Origin: Paracoccaceae bacterium
Lineage (GTDB): Bacteria > Pseudomonadota > Alphaproteobacteria > Rhodobacterales > Rhodobacteraceae
Length of the DNA stretch: 40,931 bases
Assembly: GCA_003512825.1 (NCBI GenBank)
Contig: DOOI01000165.1
Coordinates: 1-40,931 of the forward strand
Reading direction: 5' to 3'
Part shown: in pieces, positions 31,124 to 37,492 of the stretch
Position numbering within the stretch: the first letter of the stretch is position 1
Layout: every line of letters begins with the position of its first letter
Made by a program: the position numbers and the translations under genes
The notes under the pieces: model-generated
The model's database searches: none
The model's input: the letters and a program-made list of their open reading frames with translations, nothing else
Told to the model about the DNA's origin: nothing

Positions 31124-32965
31124 CTATTGCTGTTGAATGAAACGCCGAAATACCGCGTTAAACCCCTCCGGCCCCTCAAGAAAGGTTGCGTGACCCACAC
31201 CGTCGAGTGTGATCGGCTTACCTGAAGCAGCCGTGTTGAACTCTGGGCTGGCACAATATGTATGATTGATGAACGGGTCTTTTGATCCGTTGATCATCGT
31301 AAATGGCACGCTGCCTTCTCGAATAACCCGCATTTGGCGTTGCCAGTTTGTGGTTTTCAGTTTTGCAAAAGCTTGTTCGCGCGCCTGCCCGTCGGTGCGC
31401 CAGACGGCCTGCCACAAGATAGGTTCTGACTGTTTTGGCAAACCAATCGTATGCTTGGCATATTGGCCCTTCTCGAAGGGCGAGTGAAAGCGTTTGCCTG
31501 CGAGCTCCATATGAGGCGAGGCAATATAGCCCTTTGGTATATCGTCAGGATATGTCCGAACTGGCGATGTCCCGCAGATGGCCAAAGCTGAAATCGGGTT
31601 ACCAGCCGCAGCATATTCTAGAGCGACATATCCACCCAGCGACCAACCAAAAACAACCGGAGTGCCAAGCTTGAGGCGGTCCACAAGGTCGCGCACGATT
31701 TGGGCATATGCCGCCAGATTGTAATCCTTTTCAGGATCCGCATTTGGCGAAACACCATGTCCGGGAAGGTCAAATGCAACCAACCGATATTGATCCCGCA
31801 GGGCATGAAACTGATGCCGAAAGGCCTCCTTGCACGACGAATTTCCATGAATGAAAATGATCGTCTGCTCCCCGCTTCTCGTATCGCAGACCGAGACCTT
31901 GCCATGGCTTGTCTCAATCAATTGATCACGGATACCCATCGCGCGGGCCCGGTCTGCTGCACCCGCCTTACGGCGAAATGCGGCAATCAGATTGGTCTTG
32001 GCGCGGTCAAATCCGCTCCATATTTCCTGCAAGGCCGCATAAAGCCCCCCGGGATAGACCACCACGACACCAATGATCACAAGCGCAATCGAAATATTGC
32101 GCCATGCCCCATAATCCGCGAGCAATTGCGACAGGCCGACCACAACAAAGGCAGCAATGAGCGAGCCCCAAATGGTGGCCACCCCGCCCAACAAGAGAAC
32201 CGAAAGCGCGGTGGTCAAAAAGCCAAGCCCAAAGACATCAGGTGACGCGACACGCAGATAAGACCCATAAAATCCACCCGCAAGAGCTGGGAAAATGGCC
32301 GACAAGCTGAGGGTCAAAAGCCGGGTGCGCGCTTCGGAAACGCCGCGCGATATGGCATAGTATTTGTTGTCTCGCAGCGCCTTGATTGCACGACCCACAG
32401 CAGAGCGCTCCAGTTTGTACAGAAAAAACGTAGACGCCGCCATCAACCCAAGTGCGACGTAATAATACCCAATCCGGTTATCCGACGAGAGGTTATAATC
32501 CCCAATGGTCAACCGTGGCAGCAACACCATACCGCTGGTGCCACCGGTATACGTGGATTGGCTGACGACGATTTGTTGCAAAAGCTGTGTCGCCGCAATC
32601 GTCACAAGGATCACATAAATCCCCTCCAAGCGCAAAATGGGGATTGCCAGAAGTATGGCAAAGCCGACCGCGAATAAGGGTGTCAGCAACAGCGCCAACC
32701 AAGGATCGATACCGATCACCTTGGCAAATATTGCATAGGTGTAGAGCCCAATCGCAAAGAAGCCCAAATGAGCGAAATTCACGATACCGCCATACCCGAG
32801 CGAAAGGTCCCAATTTGAGGCCAGCACAGCATAGATAAACACAATGATGAGCGTATGGCGGCTATAGGTCTCGGTGACCACGAAAGGGGCAAGCAGCAAG
32901 ATCACAAAAACAATAAGCACTGGCAAAAAGCCATTGGTGCGCTGAAACGGAGGGGCATATTTCAT
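31124..32965 (-). CDS. LivM-type ABC permease fused to an AidH-like alpha/beta hydrolase
   Basis: One uninterrupted 613-residue frame. Residues 1 to about 320 are a branched-chain amino-acid type permease (LivM): SLGYGGIVNFAHLGFF, RAIKALRDNKYYAISRGVS, LLLGGVATIWGSLIAAF. After a charged linker (320-342), residues 343-613 are a complete alpha/beta hydrolase. It has oxyanion HGNSS (373-377), LPGHG, nucleophile elbow GWSLGG (Ser442), acid region NGSKDPF (Asp563) and His592 in GVGHATF. From memory the hydrolase resembles the AHL lactonase AidH throughout (ETSHG, HGNSS, VFGWSLGG, RTDGxAR). No Shine-Dalgarno precedes Met343, so the fusion looks real. The cytoplasmic C-terminus would place the hydrolase at the channel exit. 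An ATG at 32995 is an alternative start. Confidence 0.88.
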   Translation of the reverse strand: MKYAPPFQRTNGFLPVLIVFVILLLAPFVVTETYSRHTLIIVFIYAVLASNWDLSLGYGGIVNFAHLGFFAIGLYTYAIFAKVIGIDPWLALLLTPLFAVGFAILLAIPILRLEGIYVILVTIAATQLLQQIVVSQSTYTGGTSGMVLLPRLTIGDYNLSSDNRIGYYYVALGLMAASTFFLYKLERSAVGRAIKALRDNKYYAISRGVSEARTRLLTLSLSAIFPALAGGFYGSYLRVASPDVFGLGFLTTALSVLLLGGVATIWGSLIAAFVVVGLSQLLADYGAWRNISIALVIIGVVVVYPGGLYAALQEIWSGFDRAKTNLIAAFRRKAGAADRARAMGIRDQLIETSHGKVSVCDTRSGEQTIIFIHGNSSCKEAFRHQFHALRDQYRLVAFDLPGHGVSPNADPEKDYNLAAYAQIVRDLVDRLKLGTPVVFGWSLGGYVALEYAAAGNPISALAICGTSPVRTYPDDIPKGYIASPHMELAGKRFHSPFEKGQYAKHTIGLPKQSEPILWQAVWRTDGQAREQAFAKLKTTNWQRQMRVIREGSVPFTMINGSKDPFINHTYCASPEFNTAASGKPITLDGVGHATFLEGPEGFNAVFRRFIQQQ

Positions 32966-32969
32966 GAGT

Positions 32970-33857
32970 TCACAATGTCTTTGATCTATGGCCAAACAGG
33001 CCTTCGGGCTTGATCAGCAGCACAGCAATCATCATGGCAAACAGCAAAGCCGGGCTCCAATAAAGGCCAAGGAAATAAGCAGAAAAGCTCTCGACAATGC
33101 CAACGACGAAAGCGGCGTAAATCGGGCTGGTAAATCGGGCGACACCGCCGAGGATCACAACGATCAGCGATTTCATCAACGGGTCAGCGCCAAAGGTGGG
33201 GTTGATAAACCGCAACGACCCCACAAAAACACCCGCCAGCGCCGCCGTCGCAGCAGAAAGCCCCAGCGTGATGGCAAAAAGCTTGGGCACGTTCAGTCCC
33301 ATCAGTTCCGCGGCTTCGCGATTTTGTGCCGCCGCACGCAGGGTCCGCCCAACCGTGGTCCTTCGCAAAAACAGCGCGAGGCCAAACAGGGCAAAAAGTG
33401 CAATTCCAAGGATTACAAAATCAAAAGTGTTGATACTGGCCCCAAAGAAATCGATCTTTGACGTTATCGGCGGTGCAATCTGTTTGTCGCGCGGCCCCCA
33501 GTTCAGCAACACGGCGTTTTCAATAATCGACGCAGCCGCAAGCGTCGAAACCACAGCCAACAGAACGACATTCTGATTGCGCTCAAACGGTTTGATCAGC
33601 GCGAAATGCAAGACAAAGCCAAGGCAGAACATCACAGTGACCGACGTCGCAACGGCGATCAAAAAGCCAAAGCCACCCGCAACCGATTGCGAGACTTGCC
33701 ACGCCATATAGGCCCCAAGCGTCACAAAAGCCCCATGGGCAAAATTGAAAACACCCAATGTGGTCCAGACCACCGCAAGCCCGGTCGCCATCAGCGCATA
33801 AAGTCCGCCCAGCAGGATCCCGGACATCAGAATGAATGTGAATGCCTCAAACCCCAT
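32970..33857 (-). CDS. Branched-chain amino acid type ABC permease, LivH
   Basis: Membrane subunit that pairs with the LivM-hydrolase fusion. The 295 residues give about eight hydrophobic helices and the family signatures LMATGLAVVWTTLGVFNFAHGAF near the N-terminus and GRTLRAAAQNREAAELMGLN in the cytoplasmic coupling loop. The ATG shares one base with the livF stop (TGATG). The fusion gene starts four bases past its own stop. LivH-type transporters import amino acids but also ureas, aromatics and other small amphiphiles, so substrate must come from context. Confidence 0.93.
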   Translation of the reverse strand: MGFEAFTFILMSGILLGGLYALMATGLAVVWTTLGVFNFAHGAFVTLGAYMAWQVSQSVAGGFGFLIAVATSVTVMFCLGFVLHFALIKPFERNQNVVLLAVVSTLAAASIIENAVLLNWGPRDKQIAPPITSKIDFFGASINTFDFVILGIALFALFGLALFLRRTTVGRTLRAAAQNREAAELMGLNVPKLFAITLGLSAATAALAGVFVGSLRFINPTFGADPLMKSLIVVILGGVARFTSPIYAAFVVGIVESFSAYFLGLYWSPALLFAMMIAVLLIKPEGLFGHRSKTL

Positions 33858-34642
33858 CAATGCGCGCCCCCAAACATCATATCCATCAACTCGGCGTGCT
33901 TCGGCATGTTTTCAGCCGGAATTTCTCGGGTGATTGTGCCATGATCAAACAGGATCAGGCGGTCCACGAGGCTGGTCAGAAACTCTACGTTTTGATCAAC
34001 GATAATCAGCGGAACCCCAGTTTCACGGATATTTCGGACCGCCTCTGACAACTCGATCCGCAGCTTGGGCGACAGGCCAAGCGTCGGCTCGTCCAGCATC
34101 AATAACCGTGGCATCGCCAAAAGGCCCACAGCGATGCTGACCATTTGCCGCTCGCCTCCAGAAAGATACCTGATCTTGGACGTCCAGCGCTCGCGAAGTC
34201 GGGGGAACAGATCGTGGATCTGCCTTCGCATCTGGGCAACGCCGGGTCGGTTTCTGGCAGCACGAGGTGCAATATCCAGCACCTCCTCCACGGTCATTTC
34301 AGGGAACAGCAGGTTGCCTTGCATGACGTAAATCAGCCCGGCATCCACAACATCAAGCGCGTTGATACGACGCTTGCGAAACAGGTCGTAATTCAGGTTA
34401 TGCGAGACACGGGCCTGCATCTTTCCGACTGCATTCAGCCGCTTGCCTTCAAAATAAATGCCGCCATCCCATGGGTCGAGCACGCCTGCGATGGTTTTCA
34501 GCAAAGTGGTCTTTCCGTGGCCGTTAGGGCCGAAAAGGCCAACGTGCTCCCCTTGCTTCACCGACAGGCTGACATCGCGAAAGACCGATACAGGCGGATA
34601 CCCTCCACTCAGGCCGCGCAATTCCAACAGTGGCTTTGTCAT
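33857..34642 (-). CDS. ABC transporter ATPase, LivF type
   Basis: Cytoplasmic ATPase of the importer. The 261 residues contain Walker A GPNGHGKTT (38-46; His where Ala is usual), signature LSGGERQ (160-166) and Walker B LLMLDEP (180-186). The protein is about 25 residues longer than standard LivF because of an insertion around residues 71-97 (region with NAVGKMQARVSHNLNYD), just before the Q-loop (MQGNLLFPEMT). Its ATG overlaps the livG stop by four bases. Confidence 0.93.
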   Translation of the reverse strand: MTKPLLELRGLSGGYPPVSVFRDVSLSVKQGEHVGLFGPNGHGKTTLLKTIAGVLDPWDGGIYFEGKRLNAVGKMQARVSHNLNYDLFRKRRINALDVVDAGLIYVMQGNLLFPEMTVEEVLDIAPRAARNRPGVAQMRRQIHDLFPRLRERWTSKIRYLSGGERQMVSIAVGLLAMPRLLMLDEPTLGLSPKLRIELSEAVRNIRETGVPLIIVDQNVEFLTSLVDRLILFDHGTITREIPAENMPKHAELMDMMFGGAH

Positions 34643-35367
34643 GCTGCGCTCCCCAGATAGGCCTCAATCACCCGTGGATCACGGGTCACGTCCAATGGGT
34701 CGCCCTGCGCGATAATCTCGCCTTGCTCCATCACCAGCATGCGAGTTGACACACTCATCAACAAAGGCAGGACATGTTCGATCAAGAGTATCGTTATCCC
34801 ACCCTCATTCAGCGCGGTTATGGTGTCACGCACCCAGTCAATTTCATGTTCCACCAGCGAAGAAGCCGGCTCGTCGAGCATCAAAAGCTTGGGGCGCTGT
34901 GCCACTGCCGTCGCCATCATCAATTGCTTTTGATAAAATACGGGCATGGCGGCGGCGGGCATGTTGTGAAAGTTCCGCGGGAACCCAACCCTTTCCGAGG
35001 CTTCATCAGCCAGTCTTTCAGCTTCGCGCCCGCGGACACCCAGGGTTTGCTCCAGAGCAACCAAAATATTGTCAACGCAGGACATCGACCCAAAAACCGC
35101 CTCGCGCTGAAAGGTGCGAATAAGTCCTCTACGGGCGATTGACGTGTCAGACAGTGTCTGAATGGGCTTGCCTTCAAACAGAACCGTTCCGCTGGTGGCC
35201 CCAAAAGGAATACGACTAATCAGGTTAAAGAGCGTTGATTTGCCGGACCCATTGGGCCCGGCAATCCCAAGGATCTCACCTTGGTTTACGTCAAAAGACA
35301 TGTTGTTGACAGCCTTCAAGGCACCAAACGCTTTGGTCAAGCCGTCAACTTGCAACAGTGCCGTCAT
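34639..35367 (-). CDS. ABC transporter ATPase, LivG type, with degenerate signature motif
   Basis: Second ATPase of the importer. The 242 residues have a normal Walker A GPNGSGKST (38-46), Q-loop (RTFQREAVF), Walker B LLMLDEP (161-167) and H-loop His198. The place of the LSGGQ signature reads MPVFYQKQ (141-148), and the D-loop is SSLVEHE instead of AGLNPxE. One of the two composite ATP sites may therefore be non-hydrolytic, as in asymmetric ABC ATPases. It follows the binding-protein gene by six bases. Confidence 0.92.
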   Translation of the reverse strand: MTALLQVDGLTKAFGALKAVNNMSFDVNQGEILGIAGPNGSGKSTLFNLISRIPFGATSGTVLFEGKPIQTLSDTSIARRGLIRTFQREAVFGSMSCVDNILVALEQTLGVRGREAERLADEASERVGFPRNFHNMPAAAMPVFYQKQLMMATAVAQRPKLLMLDEPASSLVEHEIDWVRDTITALNEGGITILLIEHVLPLLMSVSTRMLVMEQGEIIAQGDPLDVTRDPRVIEAYLGSAA

Positions 35368-35373
35368 GCGATA

Positions 35374-36606
35374 CTACTTTGTCATCCAAGACGGGGTGAC
35401 AAATGCGCCGGATTTGAACTTGTCCGGGCTGATCATTACGCCTTTCCCATCCTGAATCTGAAAGAATGTCACAGGCACAAAGTCATCGCCGTAGCGTGCC
35501 ACATGGGTTGCCTGATCGAATTCCAGATTGCCCGCGACGATAGGCCGTTTCGTGGCTCCCATAGCCTTGCCAATGGCATCATGATCTGTCGGGTCGCCAA
35601 CGGCTTCGAGTGCATCAAAATAGATCGAGGCTTGCTCATATAGCGCTGTGCCATAGGCACCAGAGGGCACCCCATATTCGGCAAGGTACTTCGCTGACAC
35701 GTCTTTACCACGCGGGTGTGCATCTACATTAAGGGTCGCACCAATCGCGTTGAAAAGCACACCGTTGGCGTTCTTGCCTGTCAGCTCTGAAAACTCGGGA
35801 ACCAATGGCGCATATTGCAAGAACAACACCGAGTTTGTCGGGTTCTCTTGAAACTGGTTGGTAAACAGCGCCGCATTAGACGGAATGTAGTCTGTATTGA
35901 TGATGACATCCGGTGCATTTTCACGCACCTTGGCAAGGATCGGCCGCCAGTCGGACACAGGGCCAAACGGCACCAGCTCATCCAGAGTGATCGTCCAGCC
36001 AGCTTCGGCAAAAGCAACCTTCATGCCCTCCGAGATGGTCTTGGAATAGGGGTTGTCGGACGAAATGATTGCGACCGTCTTGTTCTCGAGAGGGAAATGC
36101 CCTGCCGCTGACAACGCCTCAATGGTCGGTGTCACGTCCGTCTCATACCCTTTGAAATCGGCCGTAAGCGACCAGCAGCAATTATAGCCATCCGGGTTAT
36201 TCGCAACGATCGCCGCAAATTGTGGCGAGGGACCAGCGGACAGATAGGGCATGTTTGCTTCGCCCATCAACTCCACTTCAAACATCGACAAGCTCGCGTA
36301 TCCGGTCAGGATGACATGCAATCCATCGGTGCCAATCAAACGCTCTGCCGCTGCCGATACGTTGGCAGCAGAGTGATCAACCACGTCAGCCACGACAACT
36401 TCAAACGTGTGCCCCGCAACGCCACCCTTGGCATTGGCCTCTTTCACAGCCAATTCAACGCCACGCACAAACTCTTCGCCATCAGAGGCCGTTGGCCCTG
36501 TCAGCGGCGCAAGAACGCCAATTTTGACCAGATCGGCATAGGCCGTAGTGGCGCTGAGCAACACGGCCGTTGAGAGAACTGCCGACGTTTTTAATAACTT
36601 TTTCAT
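35374..36606 (-). CDS. ABC transporter substrate-binding protein, LivK / type I periplasmic fold
   Basis: Periplasmic receptor that delivers the ligand to the LivHM-type permease. The 410 residues have a signal peptide (MKKLLKTSAVL, cleavage near TAYA-DL, residue 24), then IGVLAPLTGPTASDGEEFVRG typical of type I binding proteins. An unusual adjacent cysteine pair (NCCW, about 150 residues into the mature protein) is present. GGGAGGG precedes the ATG at 36606, so I reject a start 13 codons upstream. First gene of the five-gene operon, divergent from luxR. Confidence 0.93.
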   Translation of the reverse strand: MKKLLKTSAVLSTAVLLSATTAYADLVKIGVLAPLTGPTASDGEEFVRGVELAVKEANAKGGVAGHTFEVVVADVVDHSAANVSAAAERLIGTDGLHVILTGYASLSMFEVELMGEANMPYLSAGPSPQFAAIVANNPDGYNCCWSLTADFKGYETDVTPTIEALSAAGHFPLENKTVAIISSDNPYSKTISEGMKVAFAEAGWTITLDELVPFGPVSDWRPILAKVRENAPDVIINTDYIPSNAALFTNQFQENPTNSVLFLQYAPLVPEFSELTGKNANGVLFNAIGATLNVDAHPRGKDVSAKYLAEYGVPSGAYGTALYEQASIYFDALEAVGDPTDHDAIGKAMGATKRPIVAGNLEFDQATHVARYGDDFVPVTFFQIQDGKGVMISPDKFKSGAFVTPSWMTK

Positions 36607-36766
36607 GTGACCCTCCCAGGAAAATTCTCTTGACTCTGGGGTCAAAGGTTAGTGGGCTGGGATCAGGCCCAACAATAGTAAAGGTTTGCTAGTTTCTCGC
36701 TATTGTTCCCGCTCTTTGGAATGAACCTGCCGAAAATCGGACCCTTAGCGTAAAAGCAGTCTTGAT
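36607..36766. promoter_or_regulatory. Divergent luxR / transporter promoter region with dyads
   Basis: The 160 bases hold three dyads: TTGAC-N6-GTCAA (36630-36645), AACAATAG-N21-CTATTGTT (36671-36707, perfect eight-base arms) and CCGA-AAA-TCGG (36730-36740). None is a canonical lux box, but the first and third are placed to serve the transporter and luxR respectively. Sigma-70 boxes are not clear. Confidence 0.5.
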
Positions 36767-37492
36767 ATGAATTTGTGGAGCATGCCGTCCGAGTACCAAA
36801 GTCATGACAGCACAAGCTCGATTGTGCCGCGCATGAACGCCATGGTCAGCGACTTGGGTCTCGAACATTTTTCATTTTTGTTCCTCAATCCCGGCGCGCA
36901 TCAGCATCAGCCACTCGAAACAACCCTGCACACCAGCTATCCCAATGAATGGGTAGAGCGATATACCCGGCACAAATATTGGGATGTCGATCCAGTTGCC
37001 GATCTCGGGAGGCGCTCGATACGGCCTTTTCTCTGGGGTCAAGGCCCCTTCCTGCGCCATTTTGCAAAGCCGCAAAAGCTGGTCTTTGAGGAGGCCGGCG
37101 TGTTCAACATCAAATTCGGCCTGACAATCCCAATCCGTGGAACCCACGGCGAGCTCTCCATTTTCAACGTGGTTTCGTCAAACAAAACCCTCCTCGGAGA
37201 CGTTGTCCGCGAAGCGGAAGGGCGGCTTTATACCGCTGCCGTCGATACACATGAACTCGCGTTACGAAGCGTGAGCGCCGGCGATCTCGGGGCTCGGATC
37301 GTGCTGTCACGGCGCGAAAAAGAGTGCCTCTCCTGGACACTCGAAGGCAAAACAGCAGGCGAGATCGCAGCCATCCTGGGAATCTCGGTTTCCACCGTAA
37401 ACCAACACGCGTCCAGCGCATCAAACAAGCTCGGCAGCCTCAACAAACACCATGCCGCCGTCCAAGCTCTGCGCCTCAACCTGATCCATTAG
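36767..37492 (+). CDS. LuxR-family AHL-responsive transcription factor (solo)
   Basis: The 241 residues comprise an N-terminal autoinducer-binding domain and a C-terminal GerE helix-turn-helix (about 176-237: SRREKECLSWTLEGKTAGEIA...VNQHASSASNKLG). The six conserved pocket residues are all present: Trp62, Tyr66, Asp75, Pro76, Trp90 and Gly118. Each lies exactly five residues after its TraR counterpart (57, 61, 70, 71, 85, 113). Glu184 and Gly194 of the DNA-binding domain are kept. There is no luxI in the window. It is divergent from the transporter and likely regulates it. The start at 36767 has a poor Shine-Dalgarno; the ATG at 36782 is possible. Confidence 0.92.
   Translation: MNLWSMPSEYQSHDSTSSIVPRMNAMVSDLGLEHFSFLFLNPGAHQHQPLETTLHTSYPNEWVERYTRHKYWDVDPVADLGRRSIRPFLWGQGPFLRHFAKPQKLVFEEAGVFNIKFGLTIPIRGTHGELSIFNVVSSNKTLLGDVVREAEGRLYTAAVDTHELALRSVSAGDLGARIVLSRREKECLSWTLEGKTAGEIAAILGISVSTVNQHASSASNKLGSLNKHHAAVQALRLNLIH

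What the first reader, a model, noticed from the sequence alone, without database searches (positions are those of the whole stretch)
31124..37492. Candidate AHL import-and-hydrolysis system: LivM permease fused to an AidH-like hydrolase, beside a LuxR solo
One frame joins a complete LivM permease (about 1-320) to a complete alpha/beta hydrolase (343-613) with Ser442, Asp563 and His592 in their motifs. From memory, the hydrolase matches the AHL lactonase AidH over its whole length (ETSHG, HGNSS, LPGHG, VFGWSLGG, RTDGxAR, GHAxF). The rest of a five-gene ABC importer is present, and a LuxR protein with an intact AHL pocket is divergent. I know of no described ABC permease carrying its own lactonase. 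I infer capture, import and hydrolysis of AHL or a related lactone at the channel mouth, for quorum quenching or use as carbon.
Basis: partly seen in the sequence, partly recalled or inferred. Interest (0 to 1): 0.95.

Follow-up and report, generated by a model that had tools for sequence, protein, structure and literature searches.

The report
Signal-eating importer with built-in lactonase
A bacterial importer of the family that normally takes up amino acids is joined in one protein to an enzyme whose closest solved relative destroys the bacterial communication signals called AHLs, and it sits beside a regulator that keeps the AHL-binding residues; the set recurs in dozens of other genomes and likely takes such signals up and breaks them down, probably as food.

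Summary
ORF 31124-32965(-), 613 aa, joins a LivM permease to an alpha/beta hydrolase whose closest solved relative, by sequence and by predicted fold, is the AHL lactonase AidH. The other four LIV-importer genes and a divergent LuxR gene are present.

The arrangement is conserved: 41 of 80 fetched loci carry the fusion, 32 of the 35 with a visible binding-protein gene have the divergent LuxR, and the fused hydrolases form one clade. Searching from the LuxR side returned the whole module in 4 of 4 hits. All 33 module LuxR proteins examined keep seven AHL-pocket residues, and the shared promoter region holds a palindrome.

New evidence points to homoserine chemistry. In 7 of 41 fusion loci a divergent threonine synthase gene follows the fusion; one operon continues with kbl and tdh. 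Deacylase-family M20 genes lie near a few related loci. None of these is in the window.

Best reading: a LuxR-controlled system that imports AHLs (or close homoserine lactones) and opens the ring on the cytoplasmic side, more likely as food than for quenching. Substrate, transport and induction are inferred; nothing was assayed. QsdH, PipR and Lsr are precedents that differ. No paper seen describes this fusion.

The parts
36767..37492 (+). LuxR-type regulator gene, 241 aa, divergent from the operon
   Evidence: Autoind_bind 2e-24 and GerE 9e-14; closest solved RhlR and QscR; seven AHL-pocket positions the same in 33 of 33 module LuxR proteins
36674..36693 (.). lux-box-like palindrome between luxR and the SBP gene (minus strand ACTAGCAAACCTTTACTATT); a wider inverted repeat AACAATAG/CTATTGTT at 36671-36678 and 36700-36707 overlaps it
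   Evidence: motif fit over 33 intergenic regions: total 367 against 183-208 in 15 shuffles; sequence read
35374..36606 (-). substrate-binding protein, about 410 aa
34639..35367 (-). ATP-binding subunit, LivG type
33857..34642 (-). ATP-binding subunit, LivF/UrtE type
32970..33860 (-). permease, LivH type
   Evidence: BPD_transp_2 1.5e-37
31124..32965 (-). LivM permease fused to AidH-like hydrolase, 613 aa
31940..32005 (-). linker, about residues 321-342, rich in Lys/Arg
   Evidence: 7 K/R against 3 D/E in the 35 residues after the last hydropathy peak
31127..31939 (-). AidH-like hydrolase domain, residues 343-613; Ser442 (31640-31642), Asp563 (31277-31279), His592 (31190-31192)

Best explanation
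A divergent LuxR-type gene and a five-gene LIV-family ABC importer, whose LivM permease is fused in frame to an AidH-like hydrolase, form a conserved module that likely imports N-acyl-homoserine lactones (AHLs), and the fused domain is predicted to open their lactone ring on the cytoplasmic side. Shown by sequence: the fusion, the full importer, the conserved LuxR neighbour with its AHL pocket, the palindrome in the shared promoter region, and in some relatives an added threonine synthase gene, kbl and tdh. Inferred: the binding protein captures AHL, the ABC pump brings it in, the tethered lactonase turns it into N-acyl-homoserine, and the LuxR protein, once bound by AHL, switches the operon on. 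A deacylase (M20 genes lie near a few related loci) and a homoserine kinase from elsewhere would then feed threonine synthase, and Tdh-Kbl would give glycine and acetyl-CoA. Use as carbon or nitrogen source is more likely than quenching for its own sake.
Against: No assay and no ligand. AHLs are said to diffuse into cells without transporters (PMC4981722, passage read). The acid of the triad is Asp, not Glu as in AidH, in 41 of 41 fused loci; Tyr160 is Phe in 7 of 41 and Met144 is kept in only 19 of 41. thrC follows the fusion in only 7 of 41 loci and is not in the window; the module copies keep only 90 of the 157 columns invariant among the 16 housekeeping copies, so their activity is not assured. 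No deacylase or homoserine kinase was noticed in the window's stretch around the module (not searched with models). Binding proteins of this fold also bind amino acids and aromatic acids. The fused clade is separate from AidH, so AHL activity is not inherited by simple orthology. The AF2 domain arrangement is uncertain (pTM 0.55).
Confidence: 0.6

Rival explanations
1. The substrate is homoserine-derived but not an AHL signal: free homoserine lactone, N-acyl-homoserine or another acylated homoserine. The fused hydrolase opens the lactone or ester and the product feeds threonine metabolism.
For: thrC, kbl and tdh next to the fusion fit any homoserine source.
Against: The LuxR neighbour keeps the AHL-pocket positions in 33 of 33, and the enzyme resembles a lactonase that binds the N-acylated ring. 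The binding protein has Asn where the LIV-protein residue recalled as the ammonium ligand (Glu226 of LivJ) aligns, which speaks against a free amino group (the role of Glu226 is recalled).
Confidence: 0.15
2. A general scavenging system for some other ester or lactone, for example a plant or algal compound; LuxR senses that compound, as in the PipR/OryR family.
For: Binding proteins of this fold are solved with hydroxybenzoates and vanillate, and CouP binds ferulate (PMC3610893, passages read; its LIV-type membership is recalled). LuxR solo plus ABC importer plus peptidase is a known plant-signal layout (PMC4981722, passages read). Alpha/beta hydrolases are often promiscuous (general knowledge).
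Against: Module LuxR proteins keep Tyr at both pocket Tyr positions examined, whereas OryR-type proteins have Trp for a conserved Tyr; the hydrolase is far nearer AidH than any esterase; this reading does not predict an extra thrC with tdh-kbl.
Confidence: 0.17
3. Same chemistry as the best explanation but another purpose (so its odds overlap with it): AHL is imported and destroyed mainly to end or block quorum sensing, the cell's own or a competitor's, not for food.
For: 25 of 40 fusion genomes searched, and the window's genome, carry luxI elsewhere; QsdH is a lactonase on a pump proposed to act in quenching (PMC3466314, abstract read).
Against: 15 of 40 fusion genomes show no luxI match (many are MAGs, so absence is not proven); thrC-kbl-tdh and deacylases are catabolic. 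An ATP-driven importer seems costly for quenching alone (inference).
Confidence: 0.2
4. The fusion is incidental: the importer takes up branched-chain amino acids and the hydrolase has an unrelated housekeeping role.
For: Automatic annotation, where given, names the parts branched-subunit amino acid permease and alpha/beta hydrolase.
Against: One fused clade with conserved LuxR and operon order across several orders, and LuxR-first recovery of the module. NCBIfam LivM/LivH/LivK-type scores lie far below the curated cut-offs.
Confidence: 0.05

Closest known systems
AidH AHL lactonase (Ochrobactrum sp. T63; 4g5x, 4g9e)
   Same: closest solved sequence and fold; Ser/His/acid triad, Tyr160, Asn33 and Met144 equivalents kept in the window; no HxHxDH metal motif
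   Different: AidH was studied as a lone enzyme; here it is tethered to LivM, the acid is Asp, 36% identity, and it belongs to a separate clade
QsdH (Pseudoalteromonas byunsanensis)
   Same: AHL lactonase fused to a membrane transporter
   Different: GDSL hydrolase at the N-terminus of an RND efflux pump, predicted periplasmic; here an alpha/beta hydrolase at the C-terminus of an ABC importer permease, predicted cytoplasmic
PipR/OryR systems (Pseudomonas sp. GM79)
   Same: unpaired LuxR protein, ABC importer for the signal, hydrolases proposed to degrade it
   Different: separate peptidases, peptide-type importer, plant signal not AHL, and an altered LuxR pocket
Lsr system for AI-2 (recalled)
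   Same: ABC importer of a quorum signal followed by intracellular processing, induced by the signal; the LsrC permease model gives a weak match
   Different: other signal, LsrR/LsrK logic, no fused hydrolase
LIV/HAAT importers
   Same: SBP, two permeases and two ATPases
   Different: fused hydrolase, LuxR neighbour, binding protein without the recalled ammonium-binding Glu

Membership tests
AidH-type AHL lactonase | closest homology to AidH over the whole length | tested here: met
   1.1e-47, residues 10-273; Foldseek and VIA rank 1
AidH-type AHL lactonase | Ser/His/acid triad and Tyr160 | tested here: met
   window S, H, D (for Glu219), Y; Tyr160 kept in 34 of 41 fused loci, Phe in 7
AidH-type AHL lactonase | hydrolysis of AHL lactone rings | not testable with these tools
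   needs an enzyme assay
LIV/HAAT ABC importer | SBP, two permeases, two ATPases in one operon | tested here: met
LIV/HAAT ABC importer | binding pocket for free alpha-amino acids | tested here: inconclusive
   Asn245 aligns with the recalled ammonium-binding Glu226 position; no ligand data
AHL-responsive LuxR receptor | autoinducer-binding plus HTH domain and conserved pocket residues | tested here: met
   seven positions invariant in 33 of 33 (LasR/TraR numbering recalled)
AHL-responsive LuxR receptor | binding of, and response to, AHL | not testable with these tools
   needs a reporter assay
LuxR solo | no luxI next to luxR | tested here: met
   the only luxI match in the genome, 82% complete, is on another contig
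PipR/OryR plant-responsive system | a conserved pocket Tyr replaced by Trp; pip peptidase genes | tested here: not met
   Tyr58 and Tyr66 kept; hydrolase is AidH-like, importer is LIV type
QsdH-type transporter-lactonase | GDSL domain on an RND pump | tested here: not met
   alpha/beta hydrolase on an ABC permease
Lsr AI-2 system | LsrR, LsrK, LsrF, LsrG with LsrACDB | not tested
   no search was made for LsrR/K/F/G; the six module genes match other families best

The most novel reading that the evidence does not exclude
This is a dedicated AHL-eating system: bacteria sense AHLs with a LuxR receptor in order to import them through an ABC transporter whose permease carries its own lactonase, and in some lineages channel the homoserine through a private threonine synthase and the Tdh-Kbl route to glycine and acetyl-CoA. 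It would be the AHL counterpart of Lsr and the first ABC importer for AHLs.
Probability: 0.5. Interest if true: 0.93.

Novelty: new variant of a known kind. Interest (0 to 1): 0.8.

Why it matters
How AHLs are consumed in nature, and why AidH-like lactonases exist, is poorly known. If right, this gives AidH-type enzymes a physiological partner, shows that AHLs are worth active transport, and turns a LuxR receptor from a density sensor into a nutrient sensor. The predictions are sharp (SBP ligand, lactonase assay, growth on AHL), and named strains carry the module, such as Ruegeria haliotis B1Z28 and Hoeflea poritis E7-10.

Tried and rejected
Frameshift or assembly artefact: rejected, the fusion recurs. 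LivM-ATPase fusion in the window's own genome as a topology proof: the 518-aa and 565-aa frames gave no such fusion (only the second was scanned with Pfam); a Rhodovulum plasmid fusion served instead. Long frames of 774 and 1070 aa around AidH-like genes in two genomes: no Pfam domain in the extra part of the one scanned, possibly an over-extended frame; not pursued. AidH-like genes on plasmids: of 34 records hit four contexts were looked at and none shows the module. The Sinorhizobium RAC02 operon has SBP-LivGFHM with M20, FGase and RpiR but no AidH-like gene detected. AF2 model for domain placement: inter-domain confidence too low to use. Structural neighbours of the SBP do not fix a ligand: after 3h5l (no ligand named in its title) the next, SAR11_0655 with L-pyroglutamate, is tied with others. 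Motif caveat: the seed was chosen by eye, relatedness is not controlled, and 5 of 33 regions score under 6; four of those five hold a different palindrome of the type ACTAnCAGAnnTGCTAGT. The 80 loci were chosen by two peptide patterns of the hydrolase (best 80 of 290 confirmed), so 41 of 80 is not a census; in an even draw of 385 class genomes 14 have an AidH relative at E <= 1e-30, three of them fused, the window's included. Six fused loci show no SBP gene: five contigs start inside the operon, and L032 is a 4-kb contig with a broken LivM frame and no LivH hit. The thrC tree carries a long-branch warning. Downstream genes of ten loci were scanned with Pfam; besides the M20 of L018, the kbl of L028 and an S58 peptidase after L032 they show no common theme. 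The scan of genes around the other fused loci was by homology to found genes only, so further catabolic neighbours may be missed.
Full report
WHAT IS THERE. On the minus strand the window carries SBP (35374-36606), LivG (34639-35367), LivF (33857-34642), LivH (32970-33860) and a 613-aa LivM-hydrolase fusion (31124-32965); a LuxR gene (36767-37492) is divergent. The operon genes overlap or nearly touch.

THE FUSION IS A LINEAGE. Searching with the hydrolase part, 116 of 120 listed proteins also carry the permease domain (138 matched). In genome contigs, 41 of the 80 loci kept are fused. The fused hydrolases, with the window 42 rows, form one side of a branch with 100/100 support; AidH lies on the other side, in a group of 8 rows (97/92) that holds the four hydrolases found next to an unfused LivM gene (L044, L057, L063, L073) and three others. 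Three of those operons (L044, L063, L073) show the whole importer, no LuxR hit, and an RpiR regulator, an M20 deacylase and an N-formylglutamate-amidohydrolase homologue; at L057 only a LivM gene was detected. So lone enzyme, operon partner and fused domain all exist in this family.

THE MODULE. Of 41 fused loci, 35 show the SBP gene and 32 of these have the divergent LuxR; L016, L018 and L031 lack it. Of the six without an SBP gene, five start inside the operon and L032 is a short contig with a broken LivM frame. Searching the other way, the window's LuxR found 4 of 390 genomes of the order at E <= 1e-28, and all four carry the whole module; one is the window's genome and two repeat loci already seen. 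Seven pocket positions known from LasR and TraR (numbering recalled) are invariant in 33 of 33, the 32 loci and the window. A palindrome lies in the shared promoter region, window 36674-36693; the fit over 33 regions totals 367 against 183-208 in 15 shuffles (relatedness not controlled, seed chosen by eye).

THE CHEMICAL CLUE. In 7 of 41 fused loci a threonine synthase gene follows the fusion directly (L022, L026, L027, L028, L029, L030, L033). Six of these seven genomes have exactly two thrC genes over the cut-off, the seventh only the module copy, while 10 of 10 other fusion genomes checked have one (17 of the 41 fusion loci were given). The module copies are split from 16 housekeeping copies with 99/98 support, though they keep only 90 of the 157 columns invariant in those copies; on the hydrolase tree their hosts fall into three places. 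In L028 the operon runs on with kbl and tdh, the latter cut by the contig end; L022 has a kbl cut by the contig end; L030 has a tdh homologue near by. L018 has an M20 amidohydrolase directly downstream, and L027 and L033 have one near by on the other strand. Lactonase, deacylase, threonine synthase, threonine dehydrogenase and Kbl together make a route from an acylated homoserine lactone to glycine and acetyl-CoA, with homoserine kinase supplied from elsewhere. No single locus shows every step. This is inference from gene neighbours, and none of these extra genes was found next to the module in the window.

SIDEDNESS. The stretch after the last membrane segment has 7 Lys/Arg and 3 Asp/Glu in 35 residues. 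In Rhodovulum sp. MB263 a natural LivM fusion carries the ATPase at its C-terminus (permease 23-325, ATPase 368-603), so that end of LivM is cytoplasmic. The lactonase is therefore predicted to act on the ligand as it enters.

WHAT IS KNOWN. QsdH is a GDSL lactonase on an RND pump (PMC3466314, abstract). PipR pairs a LuxR solo with an ABC importer and peptidases proposed to degrade the signal (PMC4981722, passages). Variovorax VAI-C and Arthrobacter strains use AHLs or their products as nutrients (PMC5474475, passages). The large LuxR-solo survey (PMC10134790, section 10 and passages; supplements not seen) names no subgroup with LIV importers in what I read. The titles and abstract openings listed by searches (13, 84 and 89 showed only part of their hits) include none on this fusion; papers outside that library were not seen.

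AGAINST. AHLs can diffuse into cells (PMC4981722, passage). Binding proteins of this fold take many ligands, amino acids and aromatic acids among them. Catabolic neighbours occur in a minority of loci. luxI is present in 25 of 40 fusion genomes searched and in the window's own genome, so signal turnover cannot be excluded. Substrate, transport and regulation remain untested.

VERDICT. AHL import with lactone opening at the inner face is the best reading (0.6), more likely as food than for quenching. All parts belong to known families and the combination is a new variant.

Noticed in passing
L110 5989-6816 (CP063167.1 451688-452515): Variovorax paradoxus VAI-C, the strain reported to assimilate AHLs with deacylation (PMC5474475, passage), carries an AidH-like gene (35.5% to the window's hydrolase) on its 2.48-Mb replicon, with no importer annotated within 6 kb.
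   Followed up: partly
L053: A record labelled Bacillus subtilis SK6B4 holds an AidH-like gene that groups tightly with Pseudochrobactrum genes; the record is probably mislabelled or contaminated.
   Followed up: no
L109 4007-4828; hits H21, H25, H26: AidH-like hydrolase gene directly beside repABC on plasmid pAtS4b of Allorhizobium ampelinum; on three Agrobacterium plasmids a relative also lies about 3.7 kb from the record start (contexts of those three not opened).
   Followed up: partly
L098 3378-6578, L099 1-2325: AidH-like domain at the end of very long open frames (1066 and at least 774 aa) in two genomes of one genus; the N-terminal part of L098 has no Pfam match. Over-extended frame or another fusion.
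   Followed up: partly
L108 734-9921: Sinorhizobium sp. RAC02 (algal phycosphere) has the unfused-type operon, RpiR, M20, FGase and SBP-LivGFHM, without an AidH-like gene detected.
   Followed up: partly
L041-L043, L045, L050, L054, L055, L058, L060-L062, L065, L068, L072, L075, L079: Xenorhabdus and Photorhabdus carry AidH-like hydrolases (43-47% to AidH) with no importer hit near by; some are annotated as epoxide hydrolases.
   Followed up: no
L082 3169-4650 (own genome contig C200): The window's genome has a luxI beside its own luxR on another contig.
   Followed up: yes
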